NCBI RefSeq assembly: GCF_950295315.1
Contig: NC_080185.1
Coordinates: 45,551,237-45,615,236 of the forward strand
Direction of reading: 5' to 3'
From: Erinaceus europaeus
Lineage: Eukaryota; Chordata; Mammalia; Eulipotyphla; Erinaceidae
DNA length: 64,000 bases
In this document: in pieces, positions 33,682 through 56,294 of the stretch
Layout: every line of letters starts with the position of its first letter
Position numbering within the stretch: position 1 is the stretch's first letter
Notes under the pieces: generated by a model
Seen by the model: the letters and a program-made list of their open reading frames with translations, nothing else
What the model was told of the DNA's origin: nothing
Databases searched by the model: none
Program-made: the position numbers and the translations under genes

Positions 33682-36642
33682 ATGGCACTACAGTACATTA
33701 AATCCATAATATCAATAACTTTCAATGGCTTAAACTCACCCATCAAAAGGCACAGAGTGGGAGGATGGATCAGAAAACATAATCCAACCATATGCTGCTT
33801 GCAATAATCCTATCTGATCCAACAAGATAAACACAGGCTTAAAGTGAAAGGATGGAAAACTATCATACAGGCTAATGGACCACACAAAAAGGCAGGAACA
33901 GCCATTTTCATCTCTGACACAATAGATTTTAAATTAAATAAAGTAATAAAAGATAGGCAAGGCCATTACATAGTTATTAGAGGATCAATCAGCCAAGAAG
34001 ACTAAACAATTATTAACATCTATGGAACCAATGAGGAGTGATCTAATACATCAAAAACCTATTGAAAGAGCTACACAAATACATCAATAGTAATATAATA
34101 GTGGGAGATTTTAACCCCCACTCTCACACTTAGATCAACAAAGCAGAGAATCAACAAAGAAACAAGAGAAATAAATGAAGAGATGGACAGACTAGACCTC
34201 CTGGACATTTTCAGAGTTCTTCATCCCAAAAATTGCAATACACATTCTTTTCAAATCCACACAATATATACTCAAGAATAGACTACATGTTAGGCCACGA
34301 AGACAGTGTCATCAAATTCTAGAGCATTGAAAACATCCCAAGTATCTTCTCAGACCACAGTGGAGTAAAGCTAACATTTAACAACAAACAGAAAATTACT
34401 AAAAGAAACAGAATTTGGAAGCTAAACAACATACTGCTTAAGAGCCAATGGATGAGAGAGTCACTCAAGAAAGAAATTCAAACGTTCCTGGAAACAAATG
34501 AAAATGAAGATACAACCTATCAAAATATTTGGGACAATACAGCAGTATTGAGAGGGAACCTCAGAGCCATACAATCACATATTAACGAACAAGAAAAAGC
34601 TCAAATAAATGACTTTACTGTACACCTCAAGGATTTAGAGGAAGAGGAACAAAGGAACCCTAAAGTAACAGAAGGACAGAAATCACTAAAAGTAGAGCAG
34701 AAATAAACAACATCAAAAATAAGAAAACCATACAAAAGATCAATGAAGCCAGATGTTGGTTCTTTGAAAAATTAAACAAGATGGTAAAAGCCCCTAGCCA
34801 GACTCACTAAACAAAAAAAAGGGAGAAGACTCAAATTAATAGAATTGTAAACGATAGAGGAGATATCACAAATGACCAAGCTAGAACATCTGGAAAAATG
34901 GAAGAATTCCTAGAAACATATACCCTTCCATAATTGAACCAAGAAGAACTGAAAAACCTAAATACACCAATCACAGACAAAGAATTCAAAACTGTTATTA
35001 AGAATCTCCCCAAAAACAAAAGTCCTGGACCAGAAGGCTTCACAAATTCTACAAAACCTTCAGGAAATGGTAAATGCCTATATTTCTGATGCCTTTTCTA
35101 AAGATTAAAGAAACAGAAACACTCCCTTCCACCTTCTATGAAGCCAAAATCACCCTGGTACCAAAAGCAGATAGGGACACAGAAAAAAAAGGAAAACTGC
35201 AGAGCAATATCTCTGATGAGCATAGATGCAAAAATAGTAAACAAAATTCTGGCCAACCAGATACAACTGTATATCAAAAAGATTGTTCATCGTGACCAAG
35301 TGGGATTTATCCCATTAATGCAAGGTTGGTTCAACATACATAAGTCAATCAGTGTCATTCACCACATCAATAAAAGCAAAGCCAAAAACCACATGATTAT
35401 CTCAATAGATGCAGAGAAAGCCTTTGACAAAATCCAAAACCCATTCATGCTCAAAACTCTACAAATAATGGGAATAGATGGAAAATTCCTCACGATAGTG
35501 GAATCTATATATAACAACATCATACTCAATGGACAGAAGCTGAAAACACTCCCCCTCAGATCAAGGAATAGACAGGGCTGTCCATTATCACCATTACTCT
35601 TCAACTTAGTATTGGAAGTTCTTGCCATAGCAACCAGGCAGATAAAGAAATCAAAGGAATACAGATTGGAAAGGAAGAAGTCAAGCTCTCACTACTCGCA
35701 GATGATATGATAGTATACATAGAAAAACCTAAAACATCCAGCAGAAAGCTACTGGAAGTTATTCAGTAATATAGCAAGGTGTCAGGCTACAAAATCAGTG
35801 TACAAAAATCAGTGGCATTTCTTTATGCAAACATTAAATCTGAAGCAAAAGACATCCAGAAATCACTCCCACTCACTGTTCCAGCAAAATCAATAAAATA
35901 CGTAGGAATAAACCTGACCAAAGAAGTGAAAGACTTGTATACTGAAAACTATGAGTCACTTACAAGGAAATAGAAACTGTTACCAAGAAATGGAAAGACA
36001 TTCCATGCTCATGGATTGGAAATAAACATCATCAAAATGAATATTCTCCCCAGAGCCATATAGAAATTTAGTTAGATACCCATCAAAGATCCACCAAGCT
36101 TCTTAAAGAGAATTTAACAAAAACTACAATCATTTATCTGGAACCAGAAAATATCTAGAATTGTCAGAACTCTTGAGGAAAAGAAACATAAATGGAAGCA
36201 TCACACTCCCACATCTCAAACTATATTATAAGTCCATCATCATCAAAACAGCCTGGTACTGGAACAGAAATAGGCACACAGACCAGTGAAACAGAATTGA
36301 AAGCCCAGAAATAAACCTCACACCTATGGACATCTAATCCTTGATAAGGAGGCCCAAAGTATTAAATGGGAATAGGAAGCTCTCTTCAATAAACAGTACT
36401 GGGAAAACTGGGTTGTAACATGCAGAAGAATGAAATTGAACCACCTTATCTTACCAGAAACAAAATTCAACTCCAAATGGATCAAGGACCTGGATGTCAG
36501 GCCAGAAACTATCAAATATTTAGAGGAAAACATTGGTGGAACACTTTCCCACCTAAACCTCAAGGGCATCTTTGATGAAACAAACCCTATTGCGAGGAAG
36601 ACTAAGGCAGAAATAAACCAGTGGGACTACATCAAACTTATA
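33682..36642 (+). pseudogene. L1 ORF2 (endonuclease and reverse transcriptase), broken (copy 4a)
   Basis: From ATG 33,682 the text reads as an APE-type endonuclease start (FNGLNSPIKRHRVGGWI), but with many stops. The linker at 34,452-34,690 is open. The palm motif [12 protein letters not shown] lies at about 35,400, [10 protein letters not shown] at about 35,575-35,605, and the catalytic region at about 35,695-35,725 reads ADDMIVYIE out of frame with what precedes. The C-terminal part ends at about 36,640 without a cysteine/histidine domain. Confidence 0.85.
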
Positions 36643-39572
36643 GCCATACAATCACATATTAAACACCAAAAAGAAGCTCAAATGAACGACCTTACTGCAC
36701 ACCTCCAGGACTTGGAGGAAGAGGAACAAAAGAACCCTAAAGCAACCAGAAGGACAGAAATCATTAAACTTAGAGCATAAATCAACAACATCGAAAATAA
36801 AAGAACCATACAGCAGATCAATGAAGCCAAATGTTGGTTCTTTGAAAGATTAAACAAAATTGACAAACCCCTAGTCAGACTCACAAAACAAAAAAGAGAG
36901 AAGACTCAAATTAATAGAATTGTAAACGCTGGAGGAAATATCACAACTGACACCACAGAAATCCAGAGAATCCTGCGAAACTTCTATAAAGAACTATATA
37001 CCACCAAGCTAGAGAATCTGGAAGAAATGGAACAATTTCTAAAAACATATGCCCTTCCAAAATTGAACCAAGAAGAACTAAAAAATCTAAATGCACCAAT
37101 CACAGACAAAGAAATTGAAACCATTATTAAGAATCTCCCCAACAACAAAAGTCCTGGACCAGATGGCTTCACAAACGAATTCTACAAAACTTTCAGGAAA
37201 CAGTTAGTACCCATACTTCTTAAGCTTTTCCATAAGATTGAAGAAACAGGAATACTCCCTTCCACCTTTTATGAAGCCAACATCACCCTGATACCAAAAG
37301 CTGATAGGGACAGAACAGAAAAAGAAAACTACAGACCAATATCTCTGATGAACATAGATGCCAAAATATTAAACAAGATCTTGGCCAACTGGTTACAGCA
37401 ACATATCAAAAAGATTGTTCATCATGACTAAGTGGGATTAATCCCAGGAATGCAAAGTTGGTTCAACATCCGTAAGTCAATCAATGTCATTCACCACATC
37501 AATCAAAGCAAAGCCAAAAACCACATGATTATCTCAATAGATGCAGAGAAAGCCTTTGACAAAATCCAACGCCCATTGATGCTCAAAACTCTACAAAAAA
37601 TGGGAATAGATGGGAAATTCCTCAAGATAGTGGGGTCTATATATAGCAAACCTACAGCCAACATCATACTCAATGGACAGAAGCTGAAAGCATTCCCCCA
37701 CAGATCGGGGACTAGACAAGGCTGTCCACTGTCACCGTTACTCTTCAACATATTATTGGAAGTTCTTGCCATAGCAATCAGGGACGAGAAAGAAATCAAA
37801 GTAATACAGATTGGAAGGGAGGAAGTCAAGCTCTCACTATTTGCAGATGATATGATAGTATACATAGAAAGACCTAAAGAATCCAGTAGAAAATTAAAGG
37901 AAGTTATTAGGCAATACAGCAAGGTATCAGGCTACAAAATCAATGTACAAAAATCAGTGGCATTTCTTTATGCAAACACTAAATCCGAAGAAGAAGACAT
38001 TCAGAAATCACTCCCATTTACTATTTCAGCAAAATCAATCAAATACCTAGGAATAAAGTTGACTAAAGAAGTCAAAGACTTGTATGCTGAAAACTATGAG
38101 GCGCCACTCAAGAAAATAGAAACTGATACCAAGAAATGGAAAGATATCCCATGCTTATGGATTTGAAGAATAAATATCATCAAAATGAATATTCTCCCAA
38201 GAGCCATATACAAATTTAATGCAATACCCAGCAAAGTTCCACCAAGCTTCTTTAAGAGAATAGAACAAACACTACAATCATTTATCTGGAACCTGAAAAC
38301 ACCTAGAATTGCCAAAAACATCTTGAGGAAAAGAAAGGAAATGATGGAGGCATCAGACTCCAAGACCTTAAACTATATTATAAAGCCATCATCATCAAAA
38401 CAGCATGGTACTGGAACAAAAATAGGCACACAGAGCAGTGGGACAGAATTGAAAGCCCAGAACTAAATCCCCACACCTATGGACATCTAATCTTTGATAA
38501 GGGGGCACAAAGGATTAAATGGAAAAAGGAGGATCTCTTCAATAAATGGTTCTGGGAAAACTGGGTTGTAACATGCAGAAGAAAGAAATTGAACCACTTT
38601 ATCTCACCAGAAACAAAAATCAACTCCAAATGGATCAAAGACCTATATGTCAGACCAGAAACAATCAAATACTCAGAGGAAAACATTGGTAAAACACTTT
38701 ACCACCTACACCTCAAGGACATCTTTGATGAATCAAACCCAATTGCAAGGAAGACTAAAGCAGAAACAAACCAATGGGACTACATAAAATTGAAAAGCTT
38801 CTGCACATCCAAAGAAACTATTAAACAAACAGAGAGACCCCTCACAGAATGGGAGAAGATTTTCACATGCCAGACATCAGACAAGAAACTAATCATCAAA
38901 ATATATAAAGAGCTCAGCAAACTTAGCTCCAAAAAAGCAAATGACCCCATCCATAAATGGGAAGAGTATATCAACAAAACATTCACTACAGAGGAGGCCC
39001 AAAAGGCTAACAAACATATGAAAAACTGCTCTAGGTCACTGATTGTCAGAGAAATGCAAATTAAGACAACACTAAGATACCACCTCACTCCTGTAAGAAT
39101 GGCATACATCAAAAAGGATAGCAGCAACAAATGCTGGAGAGGATATGGGGACAGAGGAACCCTTTTACATTGCTGGTGGGAATGTAAATTGTTCCAGGCT
39201 CTGTGGAGAGCAGTCTGGAAAACTCTCAGAAGGCTAGACATGAACCTTCCATATGATCCAGTAATTCCTCTCCTGGGGTTATACCCCAAGGACTCCATAA
39301 CACCCAACCAAAAAGAGGTGTGTACTCCTATGTTCATAGCAGCACAATTCATAATAGCTAAAACCTGGAAGCAACCCAGGTGCCCAACAACAGATGAGTG
39401 GCTGAGAAAGCTGTGGTATATATACACAATGGAATACTATGCAGCTATCAAGAACAATGAACCCACCTTCTCTGACCCATCTCGGACAGAGCTAGAAGGA
39501 ATTATGTTAAGTGAACTAAGTCAGAAAGATAAAGATGAGTATGGGATGATCCCACTCATTAACAGAAGTTGA
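36643..39572 (+). pseudogene. L1 ORF2, reverse transcriptase to C-terminus (copy 4b)
   Basis: The longest L1 coding remnant in the window. Open pieces: 37,027-37,431 (fingers, with '[15 protein letters not shown]'), 37,432-38,166 (palm: [26 protein letters not shown], and the catalytic [10 protein letters not shown]), 38,185-38,466 (thumb), and 38,589-39,572 (327 codons, C-terminal region including 'WWECKLFQALW' and ending LINRS). Breaks include a TAA at 37,429-37,431, a TGA at about 38,164 and a frame change near 38,460. A stop also lies near 36,778. Antisense frames of up to 215 codons here are shadows. Confidence 0.92.
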
Positions 39573-40999: not shown

Positions 41000-41562
41000 G
41001 GAGTGAGGAAAATACTATCAGAAATAAGGAAATAATCCATGTGACCCTAAAAGAAAATATGAGCTATCGTGAAGTAATTAGAAAACTGAAAGCTGAAAGA
41101 GCTAAGCTAAAAGGCTACATAGTAGAGCAAGCTAATACTGTAAATGAACAAGATAAAAAAAATAGCTGAACTGAAGACTCTGAGGAAAGGGATACCTGAA
41201 TACAGAAAGAGAAAAAAGAATTAGCCATTAGATGGAGGGATTAAAAACATTCTCATACAAGGAACAGTTAAAGTAGGCAACTATCACCAAGTGAAAGGAT
41301 GGAAAACTGTCTTACAAGCTAATGGATCACAAAAAAGAAAAAAAAGACAGAGCAGGAACAAATTTTCTCATCTCTAACACATAGACTTTAAAATAAATAA
41401 AGTAAATAAAAGATGGGCATGGTCATTACATAGTGATCAGATGATCAATGATCTAAGAGGATTTAATAATTAACATCCAATGAGGGCCTATCTAAATATG
41501 TCAAACACTTACTGAAAAAGCTACAAAAATAGAATAGTAACATACAAGTAGTAGGAGACTTC
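41000..41562 (+). mobile_element. Old L1 (copy 5), ORF1 remnant and endonuclease region
   Basis: ORF1-like 'gaagtaattagaaaactgaaagctgaaagagc' (about 41,071) is followed after a deletion by endonuclease-region text ('tgaaaggatggaaaactgtcttacaagctaatgg') and ends at the VVGDF motif, split by the foreign retrotransposon at 41,563. It resumes with the next residues at 42,573. Confidence 0.75.
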
Positions 41563-42549
41563 TACTGGTTCAACATCCTCGAGGAAACATTCACGAAAGA
41601 CATGTCTCTGATACCTGATTACTGTAAATAATGGCGACTAATCCCTAGCACTGCAAAAATGGTATCATCTGTTTTCCATCTACACCATGCCTCGGCCTCG
41701 CGTGAGCTTAATGTGCAGCTTGACGATACGAGAATCCGGCATGAAGCCCAGCCAGTCTATCTTGGCGTTACTCTCAATCGCACACTGTCATTTCAAGAAC
41801 ATCTCATAAAAACTGCAGCAAAGGTGGGCGCGAGGAATAACATCATTGCAAGACTGGCCAGCTCCTCATGGGGCACGAGCGCTTCCACACTGTGATCATC
41901 ATCTCTGGCATTATGCTATTCCACTGCAGAATACTGTGCCCCAGTATGGTTCCGTAGCCCCCATGTCCACTAGGTCGATTCCAAATTATATTCCTCCATG
42001 AGGGTAATTTCTGGAACCATCCGTTCCACCTCGGTTCCATGGCTGCCAGTTCTTAGCAACATCGCCCCGCCAGATATTCGTCGGGATGTGGCATCATCTA
42101 AGTTCATTTCCCAAGTCTATGCTCAACCGGACCAGCCAATATACGCGGATATCTTTGCCCACCCTGTCCAATGCTTGACGTCTCATCATCCAATCCGGTC
42201 TCCTACGCCTACACTGAACTTCTCTGTTCCAGACTCTTGGAAACAGAGTTGGCAGTCAGCTGAGGTAAAGAACAAACACACAGACCCCTGCAAGCGTCAA
42301 CCCAGCTTTGACCTAGCACGTTATGATTGGACCCTCCTCAATCGCTATCAAACAGGCCATGGCCGGTGTGCCACTATGTTCCACTGCTGAGGAGCCAGGG
42401 ACGACCCGAACTGCCCCTGCAGCTACAGACAGACTATGACCCACATAGTCAACGACTGCCACCTCTCCAGATTCAAAGGAGGTCTCGACACTTTACATCA
42501 GGCTCAACCTGATGCTGTTGACTGGCTACGGAAGAAGGGCAAACGCTAG
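41563..42549 (+). pseudogene. Reverse-transcriptase C-terminal region of the jockey/I-like element
   Basis: One reading frame (codons starting at 41,659, 41,998 and so on) runs the whole length with no frameshift. It is broken only by stops at 41,629 (TAA), 41,893 (TGA), 41,971 (TAG) and 42,388 (TGA). The thumb-region motif PVYLGVTLNRTLSFQEH (about 41,753-41,803) is followed by AEYCAPVW (about 41,925), VISGTIRSTSVPWLPVLSN (about 42,001-42,060) and the terminal TMTHIVNDCHLSRFKGGL (about 42,435-42,488). That order is typical of the C-terminus of invertebrate jockey/I-group 'pol-like' proteins, with CPC...TMTHIV..C as a terminal Cys/His motif. L1 ORF2 has no such end. The TGA at 41,893 is where related proteins tend to have arginine, so CGA to TGA decay is likely. 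The catalytic FADD part lies upstream of the truncation and is absent. Confidence 0.85.
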
Positions 42550-42560
42550 AAGAAGAAGAA
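41563..42560 (+). mobile_element. Jockey/I-group-like non-LTR retrotransposon, 5'-truncated, with (GAA)n tail and TSD
   Basis: This 998-bp segment interrupts L1 copy 5. The 12-bp repeat GTAGGAGACTTC occurs at 41,551-41,562 and 42,561-42,572, and removing the insert restores the L1 frame. It ends not in poly(A) but in AGAAGAAGAAGAA right after a TAG stop at 42,547-42,549. Base composition (CpG-rich, GC-richer) differs sharply from the AT-rich L1 around it. Only the last third or so of ORF2 is present, as expected from 5' truncation. Clade placement (jockey, I or a relative) is from recognised protein motifs only. Confidence 0.88.
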
Positions 42561-42572
42561 GTAGGAGACTTC

Positions 42573-49357: not shown

Positions 49358-49751
49358 TTGATTTAGCCACTTTCCCTTCCAGGTACAAAAGAGAAATTTC
49401 TCTGGTATTTCAAACATTGCTGAAAGCTGTCACAATTCCAATTGCAAGGCAAACTTAGTACAAAATTGTGTTCACCCAAGCAATCAATTTCAAAAGTCCA
49501 CCCTCCCTTCTTTTAAGAGTGGTAAGCTGTAAACTGGCCTCTGTTCCATTATTTTTAGGTGACTGCATTAATAGCACCACTTTCAGTAAAAGCCATCCAC
49601 AGAGAGATTTCGGAAAGCTCTCACTTTGGTGCTGGACATTACAATTGAAAGAAAAGACTTTATTTCCTAAGAGTCTAACAAGGCTTGCTTGAGGAGACAA
49701 TTGTAGCCTGGAGAAAGTGAAACTGTTCTAGGTCCCAGCAGAAACATCCTG
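49358..49751. repeat. Direct repeat unit A (about 394 bp)
   Basis: From GATTTAGCCACTTTCCCTTC to CAGCAGAAACATCCT. The same sequence restarts immediately at 49,752 with only a few changes, so units A and B are a tandem duplication. The minus strand holds AATAAAG near 49,660, which would suit an old LTR, but I cannot place it. Confidence 0.8.
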
Positions 49752-50437
49752 ATTTAGCCACTTCCCCTTCCAGGGACAAAAGAGAAATTTCTCTGGTATT
49801 TCAAACACTGCTGAAAGCTGTCACAATTCCAATTGCAAGGCAAACAGTACAAAATTGTGTTCACCCAAGCAATCAATTTCAAAAGACCACCCTCCTTTCT
49901 TTTAAGAGTGGTAAGCTGTAAACTGGCCTCTGTTCCATTATTTTTAGGTGAATGCATTAATAGCACCACTTTCAGTAAAAGTCATCCACAGAGAGACTTC
50001 AGAAAGCTCTCACTTTGGTGCTGGACATTCCAATTGAAAGAAAAGACTTTATTTCCAAAGAGTCTAACAAGACTTGCTTGAGGAGACAATTGTAGCCTGG
50101 AGAAAGCGAAACTGTTCTAGGGCCCAGCAGAAACATCCTGGAGAGATAGAGAAAAGGGAGGGGGCAGAGATGGGGATGTAGGGAGAGGGAGAGAAGGGAG
50201 AAGGAAAGAGAGAGGGAGGGAGAGAGAGAGAGAAGAGAGAGACAGAGACAGAGAGAGACAGAGAGAGAAAGCTCAGGTGCCTGAGCCCTCTCCCCCTAGT
50301 CAAGCACACAATTTCCCACTGGTTCAAGAAAGCTGAAACATACTTACACTAGAAATAGTGCTGGATAATGTGAGGGATAATCGGACACATTTGTCAGAGA
50401 CCTGGCATTATAACAGAGCAGAAAAAAAAAAGAAAAA
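49752..50437. repeat. Direct repeat unit B with GA-rich extension
   Basis: It repeats unit A, then continues with a GA-rich simple-sequence block (50,145-50,275), 'gctcaggtgcctgagccctctcccc' and 'gctggataatgtgagggataatc', up to a run of As before the retroviral LTR at 50,441. The part from about 49,935 recurs as unit C at 52,730. Confidence 0.8.
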
Positions 50438-52433: not shown

Positions 52434-52729
52434 TGTTTTTAAGTTCAGAGGCTCCAACAGGCCGGACTAGCGTTGAGGCGGTAGACAGAGACAGAGACTC
52501 AAGGACACACGGCTGGGCTGAGAAGCTGCAGTTTAATCTTTATTCATGAGTGGGCAAATCACCACACCATGTGCTTCCCAATCATTCTCCCTCCGTGGCT
52601 GCTGCTGGGACTCTGGGTGTCCTTAGCATAGGGGGCGGGGAGAAAGAGGGGCACGAAACTAGCAAGGGCCAAACCAATTCTCTCAGAGTTGGGGGGAAGG
52701 GGAATAAACCAATATGAAACATACCACCA
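52434..52729 (-). mobile_element. 5' LTR of the short endogenous retrovirus
   Basis: 296 bp, from TGGTGGTATGTTTC to CTTAAAAACA on the minus strand, nearly collinear with the 3' LTR. The usual short host duplication is not visible at the outer ends; instead long direct repeats (units B and C) lie on either side. Confidence 0.9.
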
Positions 52730-53237
52730 TTATTTTTAGGTGAATGCATTAATAGGACCACTTTCAGTAAAAGTCATCTACAGAGAGATTTCTGAAAGCT
52801 CTCACTTTGGTGCTGGACATTCCAATTGAAAAAAAAGGCTTTATTTGCAAAGAGTCTAACAAGGCTTGCTTGAGGAGACAATTGTAGCCTGGAGAAAGCG
52901 AACCTGTTCTAGGGCCCAGCAGAAACATCCTGGAGAGATAGAGAAAAGGGAGGGGGGCAGAGATGGGGGTGTAGGGAGGGGGAGAGGGAGAGAAGGGAGA
53001 GGGAAAGAGACAGGGAGGGAGAGAGAGAGAGAGAGGAGAGAAAGACAGAGACAGAGAGAGACAAAGAGAGACAGAGAGGGAAAGCTCAGGTGCCTGAGCC
53101 CTCTCCCCCCAGTCAAGCACACAATTTCCCACTGGGTCAAGAAAGCTGAAACATACTTACACTAGAAATAGTGCTGGATAATGTGCGGGATAATCAGACA
53201 CATGTGTCAAGAGACCCGGCATTATAACAGAGCAGAA
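52730..53237. repeat. Direct repeat unit C
   Basis: It matches unit B from 'attatttttaggtgaatgcattaata' (about 49,937) to 'gcattataacagagcagaaaaaaa' (about 50,430), including the GA-rich block (52,935-53,090). It continues into sequence not present after unit B. Confidence 0.85.
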
Positions 53238-53340
53238 AAAAAGTGTTATGGAAAAAGATTTGAATTTGCACTTCTACATTTCCATGGAGGAAAAAAAAAG
53301 TCATCAGGAAAAGATTCTACTAGAGCTGTCTATAGTACAG

Positions 53341-53569
53341 GAAATATTGGCAGAACTCATTTCCATCTAAATTTTATAGACATTTTTAATTGCAAAAATA
53401 CAATTGTGAGGAAGATAAAAACAAAAATAAATCCATGGGACGATATCAAATGGAAAACCTGAAGAGTAAAAGAACCCACCACTCAAACCAAGAGACTTCT
53501 TACAGAATGGGAGAAGATCTTAACATGCCATATATCAGAGAAATGGATAATAACCAAAATATATAAAAA
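53341..53569 (+). mobile_element. L1 ORF2 C-terminal fragment, left arm of an inverted duplication
   Basis: The reading 'NIGRTHFHLNFIDIFN' and 'LLTEWEKILTCHISEK' is the ORF2 region just after the thumb. The same segment occurs on the minus strand at 54,031-54,260 with only a handful of differences. Confidence 0.82.
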
Positions 53570-53847: not shown

Positions 53848-54345
53848 CAGAAGTGAAGTGTTATCTCATTGTTGCCTTTATTTTCATTTTTCTGACAATC
53901 AATGACTTGGAGCTTTCTCTCATATGTCTTTTGGACTTTTGGATTTCTTCTTTGATGAATATTCTCTTCATATCCTCTCTCCAATTTTGGATGGGGTCAT
54001 TTGGTTTTGGGTTACTGAGTCTGCTGAGCTTTTTATATATTTTGGTTATTATCCCTTTCTCTGATATATGGCATGTAAAGATCTTCTCCCATTCTGTAAG
54101 AAGTCTCTTGGTTTGAGTGGTGAGTTCTTTTACTCTTCAGGTTTTCCATTTGATATCGTCTCATGGATTTATTTTTGTTTTTGTCTTCCTCATAATTGTA
54201 CTTTTGCAATTAAAAATGTCTATAAAATTTAGATGGAAATGAGTTCTGCCAATATTTCCCCCTAAGTATTTGATAGTTTCTGTTCTAACACCTAAGTGCC
54301 CTTGATGCATTTTGAGTTTACTTTTTTATCTATTCAATAATGATT
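53848..54345 (-). pseudogene. L1 ORF2 C-terminal fragment, antisense (right arm and continuation)
   Basis: The minus strand runs from 'GGNIGRTHFHLNFIDIFN' (about 54,260) through 'LLTEWEKIFTCHISEK' and 'NDPIQNWREDMKRIFI' to 'SLIVRKMKIKATMR' near 53,880, the usual order of the ORF2 C-terminal third. It is longer than its plus-strand partner. Confidence 0.82.
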
Positions 54346-55585: not shown

Positions 55586-55736
55586 AAAGGAAAACATCAT
55601 TGTTTAAAGTAACGAAGCAAAATGAAATGGATTGCAGAAGAAGCAGGATGTAAGCCTAATAGTGTAGGTCTGCTGAAAGAGAGGTCTTTATAATAAATAA
55701 TAAACCAGTTTGTTCTGCCTCAAAAACCATGATAGT

Positions 55737-55936
55737 TCTTCTTCTTCTTCTAGTGTTTGCCCTTCTTCCATAGCCAGTCAACAGAGTCAGGTTGAAAGCT
55801 GTCAGGAGCTGCTTGTTGCTGGCTTTGAAAGTGACTGGGATCCATGTGGATTCAGTCGGCTAGGAAGGATCGTCAGTTTCCCCAGTGAATGGGTACTCAC
55901 GGGATGCACCACGAGAAGGTCGATCCAATGCATCCC
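55737..55936 (-). mobile_element. Complete 200-bp short retroposon with ribozyme 5' end and LINE-like 3' end
   Basis: The 12-bp repeat AACCATGATAGT lies at 55,725-55,736 and 55,937-55,948, defining both ends exactly. On the minus strand it starts GGGATGCATTGGATCG and ends CAAACACTAGAAGAAGAAGA. Bases 55,936-55,867 fit a hepatitis-delta-like ribozyme. About 70 bases (55,866-55,796) are of unknown origin. The last 46 bases before the tail (55,795-55,750) match the 3' end of the jockey/I-like LINE (42,504-42,549) with 4 differences by eye, including its stop codon and (GAA)n tail. It has no A/B-box tRNA head, so it is not a standard SINE. It looks like a short internally deleted partner that uses the LINE machinery. 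Confidence 0.88.
55867..55936 (-). ncRNA. Predicted HDV-like self-cleaving ribozyme
   Basis: Paper folding gives the nested double-pseudoknot order. P1 is GGGATGC (55,936-55,930) with GCATCCC (55,907-55,901), 7 bp. P2 is GGATCG (55,926-55,921) with CGATCC (55,872-55,867), 6 bp. P3 is ACC (55,920-55,918) with GGT (55,910-55,908), closing an L3 loop TTCTCGT. A P4 hairpin lies in 55,900-55,881, with two possible pairings (GTGA/TCAC or CCC/GGG). J4/2 reads AACTGA, and the C at 55,876 is placed like the catalytic cytosine (C75/C76). The predicted cleavage site is the 5' side of the first G, which is also the exact element boundary. Ribozymes of this class are known at the 5' ends of R2, RTE-type and L1Tc/ingi-type retrotransposons. 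Activity is untested. Confidence 0.8.
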
Positions 55937-56294
55937 AACCATGATAGTGATCCTAGACATTGCTAGTCAGCCTTTAATAAATGCTTTGTTCTTTTAATAA
56001 ATTATTCTATCACTGGTGTTAAACATTCATATCTTAAAAGAGATGTTTCTGAATGAAAGTGGCATATCCATTATTTATAATATGCTATACTTTATAGCAA
56101 GGAATACATTTTCTATTATTTTCTTGTTGTTCTAGATACATTTAGGCCATTTACCTGTTCTTTGGTTTAGATGCCTAGGGGCCCATAGCATGCATTTAAA
56201 AGATACCTAGCTAAGGTTAGGGAGTACGAGGACAGAGCTGAGACAATTAAGCTCAATTCAGGGAAATAAATTCAGGTGTTCTACACATCTATAC

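What the first reader, a model, noticed from the sequence alone, without database searches (positions are those of the whole stretch)
55867..55936. HDV-like ribozyme forms the exact 5' end of a short mammalian retroposon
The first 70 nt of a TSD-bounded 200-bp element (minus strand) can form P1 (7 bp), P2 (6 bp) and P3 (3 bp) in the nested order of the hepatitis-delta fold, with an L3 loop TTCTCGT and a J4/2 containing ACTGA for the catalytic C (55,876). All three helices pair perfectly, and the predicted scissile position is the element's first base, as in R2, RTE-type and trypanosome L1Tc/ingi retrotransposons, where the ribozyme trims the 5' end of the RNA. I do not know of such a ribozyme on a short retroposon in a hedgehog-like mammal.
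Basis: partly seen in the sequence, partly recalled or inferred. Interest (0 to 1): 0.92.

Follow-up and report, generated by a model that had tools for sequence, protein, structure and literature searches.

The report
Delta-type ribozyme heading a hedgehog-type retroposon
A short jumping element in what looks like a hedgehog genome begins, to the very base, with a predicted RNA fold of the self-cutting hepatitis-delta type, which would let its RNA trim its own front end and which we did not find reported on a mammalian mobile element.

Summary
A 200-bp element (55737-55936, minus strand) lies between perfect 12-bp target-site duplications, and its first 70 nt form P1 (7 bp), P2 (6 bp) and P3 (3 bp) without a mismatch, with L3 UUCUCGU and J4/2 ACUGA. 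The topology alone is expected 0.42 times per window, so by itself it is not significant. Starting exactly at a boundary fixed independently by the duplication has a chance of about 2-3 per million per position. Rfam's HDV ribozyme model aligns end to end there at 26.6 bits, below its cut-off of 50. The element is an internally deleted LINE derivative: 58 nt at its 3' end are 93% identical to the end of a LINE ORF fragment at 41563-42559. I infer, without a sequence match, that this LINE is Vingi, reported in hedgehogs and related to trypanosome ingi, whose short derivatives carry HDV-like ribozymes. Likely function: trimming of readthrough RNA at the element's first base. Unproven: cleavage, covariation across copies, and P1.1, which is weak in this copy. 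Nested folds without the pseudoknot compete, and this copy's upstream flank can pair with P2.

The parts
55737..55936 (-). short retroposon, 200 bp, first base at 55936
   Evidence: bounded by a 12-bp perfect target-site duplication; (AAG)n 3' tail
55937..55948 (-). target-site duplication, 5' copy (ACTATCATGGTT)
55725..55736 (-). target-site duplication, 3' copy
55867..55936 (-). HDV-like ribozyme domain, nt 1-70 of the element; predicted cleavage just 5' of 55936
55930..55936 (-). P1 5' strand (nt 1-7)
55901..55907 (-). P1 3' strand (nt 30-36)
55921..55926 (-). P2 5' strand (nt 11-16)
55867..55872 (-). P2 3' strand (nt 65-70)
55918..55920 (-). P3 5' strand (nt 17-19)
55908..55910 (-). P3 3' strand (nt 27-29)
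55911..55917 (-). L3 (nt 20-26, UUCUCGU), with U20, C22, U23, C24 and G25 as in the HDV model and one model position missing
   Evidence: alignment
55881..55893 (-). P4 hairpin (nt 44-47 with 53-56), flanked by AGUA (40-43) and GAA (57-59)
   Evidence: pairs, fold; the loop-E reading of the flanks is inference
55873..55877 (-). J4/2 ACUGA (nt 60-64); candidate catalytic C61 = 55876
55750..55845 (-). 31-codon reading frame starting 21 nt after the ribozyme; its end is in the frame of the LINE ORF end
55738..55795 (-). 3' end shared with the LINE (54 of 58 identical)
41563..42559 (+). 5'-truncated LINE fragment with the same 3' end; flanked by a duplication of 13 bp, of which up to 2 may belong to the tail (41550-41562 and 42560-42572)

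Best explanation
The element is a short, internally deleted derivative of a LINE, probably Vingi. It keeps an HDV-like self-cleaving ribozyme as its 5' end and the LINE's 3' end, that is the last codons of the ORF plus (AAG)n. Transcribed from a promoter upstream in the host, the RNA folds into the double pseudoknot and cuts itself immediately 5' of nt 1, using C61 as general acid. This releases an RNA with the exact element 5' end, which the LINE's reverse transcriptase recognises by its 3' tail and inserts elsewhere. Shown: boundaries, shared 3' end, complementarity, placement. Inferred: folding, cleavage, use in retrotransposition, that the LINE itself has this 5' end, and the clade name. 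The confidence given is that the family's 5' end is an HDV-like ribozyme; that this very copy is active I put near 0.55.
For: Perfect P1, P2 and P3 in HDV order, with C-N-R-A. Fold start equals the TSD-defined first base, about 2-3e-6 by chance per position. RF00094 hit over the whole model at the same place. 3' end shared with a LINE ORF end that has its own duplication. Trypanosomatid ingi-clade short elements carry HDV-like ribozymes at their 5' ends, several active in vitro, cut at +1 (PMC4035085, passages and one section). R4, RTE and L1 (L1Tc) ribozymes also cut at the element's 5' end (PMC3774820, section and passages). Vingi is reported in hedgehogs, with a non-autonomous Vingi-1N3_EE (PMC3183009, passages).
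Against: Rfam score 26.6 against a gathering cut-off of 50. P1.1 has one possible G-C (C22-G37) beside a U-U mismatch (letters). Seven nt lie between P1 and P4, against the 0-2 reported for J1/4 of R2 (PMC3774820). The best nested fold (-25.8 kcal/mol, z -1.83, 9 of 200 shuffles as good) breaks P2 and P3 and pairs C61. With 20 nt of this locus's upstream flank, the flank pairs with the P2 3' strand (-32.2 kcal/mol). Well-folded candidates can be inactive: some trypanosomatid ones with adequate predicted folding showed none (PMC4035085), nor did sow bug and native horseshoe crab R2 (PMC3774820). Only one 5' end was available, so there is no covariation. No search named the LINE clade.
Confidence: 0.86

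Rival explanations
1. The fold descends from an active ribozyme of the parent LINE but is dead in this copy. This is a sub-case of the best explanation, not exclusive with its family-level claim.
For: U21-U38 mismatch where HDV has a second P1.1 pair (recalled; letters). Upstream flank pairs with P2 in the predicted fold. The two 3' ends differ at 4 of 58 positions, in either copy.
Against: All 16 pairs of P1, P2 and P3 and the C-N-R-A are intact.
Confidence: 0.35
2. Chance complementarity at the 5' end of an ordinary retroposon.
For: Topology alone is expected 0.42 times per window; the Rfam score is below the gathering cut-off and the hit is not listed in the whole-window scan.
Against: Starting exactly at the TSD boundary has about 2-3e-6 chance per position; L3, first G and C-N-R-A also match; the inferred clade's relatives carry such ribozymes (PMC4035085).
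Confidence: 0.07
3. The 5' domain serves as an internal promoter or a structured leader for translation, not as a ribozyme.
For: Pr77 of L1Tc is both promoter and ribozyme (PMC4035085). GATCGACC at nt 12 resembles part of a pol III B box, and an A-box-like word lies at nt 75 (consensus recalled). An ATG lies 21 nt after the ribozyme.
Against: No tRNA found; the two box-like words are in the wrong order and the strict B-box pattern gave no match; promoter function would not require the double pseudoknot. Not exclusive with the ribozyme.
Confidence: 0.07

Closest known systems
Pr77/L1TcRz-type HDV-like ribozymes of trypanosomatid L1Tc/ingi LINEs and their short derivatives (NARTc, SIDER)
   Same: HDV fold at the first base of a short LINE-derived element; cut at +1 there, predicted here (PMC4035085, passages and one section)
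   Different: host here looks mammalian; no sequence of theirs was aligned here; the downstream attenuator was not tested
R2, R4, RTE and Baggins HDV-like ribozymes
   Same: 5'-terminal ribozyme of a non-LTR element; P1 of 6-7 bp, P2 of at least 5 bp, L3 G and J4/2 C (PMC3774820, sections and passages)
   Different: longer segment between P1 and P4; P1.1 weaker; not in rDNA here
Mammalian CPEB3 ribozyme
   Same: HDV-like fold in mammals (PMC8256844 and PMC11620745, passages)
   Different: single-copy intronic, not a mobile element; no CPEB3 family among the matches
Vingi-1N non-autonomous families of hedgehog
   Same: hedgehog; that they are internal deletions of the LINE is recalled
   Different: sequence not compared, since the defining paper is not held; no ribozyme paper found

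Membership tests
HDV-like ribozyme (structural class) | P1 of 6-7 bp starting at the cleavage site | tested here: met
   7 of 7 pairs, starts at the element's first base; the cleavage site itself is predicted
HDV-like ribozyme (structural class) | P2 of at least 5 bp forming the pseudoknot | tested here: met
   6 of 6 pairs by complementarity
HDV-like ribozyme (structural class) | P3 of 3 bp closing L3 with the conserved U and G | tested here: met
   3 of 3 pairs, UUCUCGU
HDV-like ribozyme (structural class) | P1.1 pseudoknot | tested here: inconclusive
   C22-G37 possible, next position U-U (letters)
HDV-like ribozyme (structural class) | catalytic C and following A in J4/2 | tested here: met
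   C61-U-G-A64 directly before P2'
HDV-like ribozyme (structural class) | short J1.1/4 and a P4 | tested here: inconclusive
   P4 of 4 bp forms but 7 nt lie between P1 and P4; could be a loop-E-type extension (inference)
HDV-like ribozyme (structural class) | self-cleavage at +1 | not testable with these tools
   needs a transcription assay
HDV-like ribozyme (structural class) | covariation across copies | not tested
   no second 5' end in the window; own-genome search did not complete
Rfam RF00094 HDV_ribozyme | gathering score 50 | tested here: not met
   26.6 bits; so not filed under RF00094 itself
Internally deleted LINE derivative (SIDE) | 3' end shared with a LINE, TSD, no long ORF | tested here: met
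   54 of 58 identical, 12-bp TSD
Internally deleted LINE derivative (SIDE) | 5' end shared with the LINE | not tested
   the only LINE copy found in the window is 5'-truncated
Vingi clade | reverse transcriptase phylogeny | tested here: inconclusive
   only the C-terminal part is present; no significant match; assignment rests on recalled motifs and published host range

The most novel reading that the evidence does not exclude
A mammalian lineage carries an entire amplified family of LINE and SINE-like elements whose RNAs are born by HDV-type self-cleavage from host transcripts. The ribozyme came in with a horizontally acquired Vingi LINE and seeded active ribozymes at many loci in the hedgehog genome, some possibly cutting host mRNAs, and with a loop-E module grafted under P4.
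Probability: 0.4. Interest if true: 0.85.

Novelty: new member of a known kind. Interest (0 to 1): 0.74.

Why it matters
[quoted passage not shown] An HDV-like ribozyme on a hedgehog-type retroposon would break that pattern. It would explain how a short element without a promoter of its own obtains an exact 5' end, and extend the ingi-type ribozyme from trypanosomes to a related vertebrate clade. If the element belongs to a family such as Vingi-1N3_EE (311 copies listed in PMC3183009; membership not tested), it would offer many natural copies in one mammal for testing. Among open-licence papers none held both Vingi and ribozyme (0) or both HDV-like ribozymes and hedgehog (0).

Tried and rejected
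Rejected: tRNA-derived SINE (0 tRNAs). RTE/BovB SINE: my first guess, dropped when the 3' end matched an ORF end in the window. Bacterial matches to a 23-nt core pattern (6 loci): none of 6 holds the fold, though one has the P2' word nearby; taken as chance.

Led nowhere: viral-contig scans for a 5' and a 3' pattern (0 and 0). LINE protein pieces: 138-aa piece in the protein collection, 4 candidates and none at E 0.001 or better; two pieces in Pfam, 0 families; viral contigs, 8 pattern matches and none confirmed; PDB, 0 at E up to 10. A recalled tRNA-SINE word meant to confirm a hedgehog: 0 matches. The African hedgehog repeat survey (PMC12026660, abstract and passages) names neither Vingi nor ribozyme in its main text; it lists 4,476 I-Jockey copies, which may or may not be these. 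Papers not held: Kojima 2011, Ruminski 2011, Webb 2009, Sanchez-Luque 2011; what I say of them is recalled or from citing papers.

Host: that the window is hedgehog rests on the inferred Vingi clade and on a LINE-1 ORF2 match (E 7.6e-91), not on a named record. Vingi also left old traces in the human genome and is reported in reptiles (PMC5753468), so it does not by itself prove a hedgehog.

Not done: pseudoknot free energy (nested parts only); a covariance model of our own, for lack of homologues.

Full report
What is there. On the minus strand, bases 55936 down to 55737 form a 200-bp element ending in (AAG)n and flanked by ACTATCATGGTT on both sides, 12 of 12 identical. The bases that follow the two copies differ (G in the element, T in the flank), so the element's first base is fixed at 55936 without reference to any RNA structure.

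The fold. Counting 55936 as 1: P1 pairs 1-7 with 30-36, P2 11-16 with 65-70, P3 17-19 with 27-29; all 16 pairs are Watson-Crick. L3 is UUCUCGU. J4/2 ends in C61-U-G-A64 directly before the P2 3' strand; C61 is base 55876. P4 can form as 44-47 with 53-56.

Chance. The window holds one such topology, this one, against 0.42 expected in 128,000 strand-bases from an order-3 Markov null of the window (4,983 hits in 1.536e9 bases). So the three helices alone prove little. Requiring C-N-R-A gives 0.013 expected. What matters is position: the probability that a fold begins at one given base is 3.2e-6, or 1.8e-6 with the element's own composition (1,693 of 9.36e8), and with C-N-R-A about 1e-7 in both. 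With first-base G 27, and with an L3 of U..UCG as well 0, of 9.36e8. The extra sequence rules were set after seeing the element and carry less weight. Even allowing for a hundred retroelement boundaries in the window (a guess), the coincidence stays near 3e-4 on topology alone.

Rfam. In 281 nt around the site the best of five matches was RF00094, HDV ribozyme, over model positions 1-89 and bases 55938-55869, with 26.6 bits and E 0.045 for all 4,227 families; the gathering score is 50. Divided by the number of families and scaled to both strands of the window this is about 0.0024 (my arithmetic). No match passed gathering in the window, and at E up to 10 over the whole window the hit is not among the 15 listed. 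The other four local matches had E 1.7 to 8.

Against. P1.1, recalled as two pairs in HDV, has here C22-G37 and then U21 against U38. Between P1 and P4 lie 7 nt where R2 ribozymes have 0-2 in J1/4 (PMC3774820, section read). The sequence there, AGUA before and GAA after the P4 hairpin, is what I recall as the consensus of the loop-E (bulged-G) motif. If formed it would extend P4, leave J4/2 as ACUGA and remove most of the length problem. This is inference after the fact. The nested minimum-energy fold (-25.8 kcal/mol, z -1.83) lengthens P1 at the cost of P2 and P3 and pairs C61. With 20 nt of this locus's upstream sequence the predicted fold also pairs that flank with the P2 3' strand (-32.2 kcal/mol, z -1.70). 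These programs cannot form pseudoknots, but misfolding could compete at this insertion. Candidates with adequate predicted folding are not always active (PMC4035085; PMC3774820).

What carries it. A 58-nt stretch at the element's 3' end is 93% identical (54 of 58) to 42504-42561 on the plus strand. There it is the end of a degraded LINE ORF (...QPDAVDWLRKKGKR, stop, then (AAG)n), in an insertion of 41563-42559 flanked by its own 13-bp duplication, up to 2 bp of which may belong to the tail. The short element's ATG, 21 nt after the ribozyme, opens 31 codons whose last part is that ORF end, in frame. So it is an internally deleted LINE derivative, as far as the 3' end shows; the LINE's own 5' end is not in the window. 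The clade name Vingi is inferred: the protein motifs are recalled and no search named a clade. Vingi is reported in hedgehogs and reptiles, with old traces in the human genome (PMC5753468, passages), and a non-autonomous Vingi-1N3_EE is listed for hedgehog (PMC3183009, passages). The African hedgehog survey does not name Vingi (PMC12026660). The window also holds LINE-1 (ORF2 match).

Mechanism. Trypanosomatid ingi-clade elements, relatives of Vingi by the title of the Vingi paper (cited), carry at their 5' ends a 77-nt sequence that acts as promoter and HDV-like ribozyme. Short derivatives keep it, and cleavage is 5' of +1 (PMC4035085, passages and one section). The element here has the same anatomy. 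Most likely host readthrough RNA is cut at +1 and the released RNA is mobilised by the LINE's enzyme through the shared 3' tail. Structure by complementarity, boundary and shared tail are shown; cleavage and mobilisation are inferred.

Not reached. No other 5' end was obtained: one copy in the window, none in viral contigs with the one pattern tried, six bacterial matches without the fold, and the own-genome search was unanswered in eight identical tries. Covariation is therefore untested, and it is the first thing to do.

Novelty. HDV-like ribozymes on non-LTR elements are a known kind. A member on a mammalian retroposon, or one linked to Vingi, I did not find in ten paper searches. Some of these listed only the top 20 to 40 of up to 1,445 papers; the two sharpest returned 0. 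PMC11620745 states that no retrotransposon-linked case is known in mammals beyond LINE-1 (passage). Absence from an open-licence library is weak evidence, and Ruminski 2011 was not readable.

Noticed in passing
41563-42559: 5'-truncated LINE fragment with a decayed C-terminal reverse-transcriptase-like region (motif reading recalled), flanked by a 13-bp duplication; the probable partner LINE.
   Followed up: partly
49359-50140: Tandem duplication of about 390 bp, 96% identical, with parts recurring at 52727-53242.
   Followed up: no
53340-53569 and 54030-54259: Inverted pair of 230 bp, 97% identical.
   Followed up: no
34557-38789: Two stretches side by side, 85% identical over about 2.16 kb; the second holds an ORF2 piece close to LINE-1 ORF2p.
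   Followed up: partly
55750-55845: The short element keeps a 31-codon frame joining a possible ORF start directly to the LINE ORF end, in frame.
   Followed up: partly
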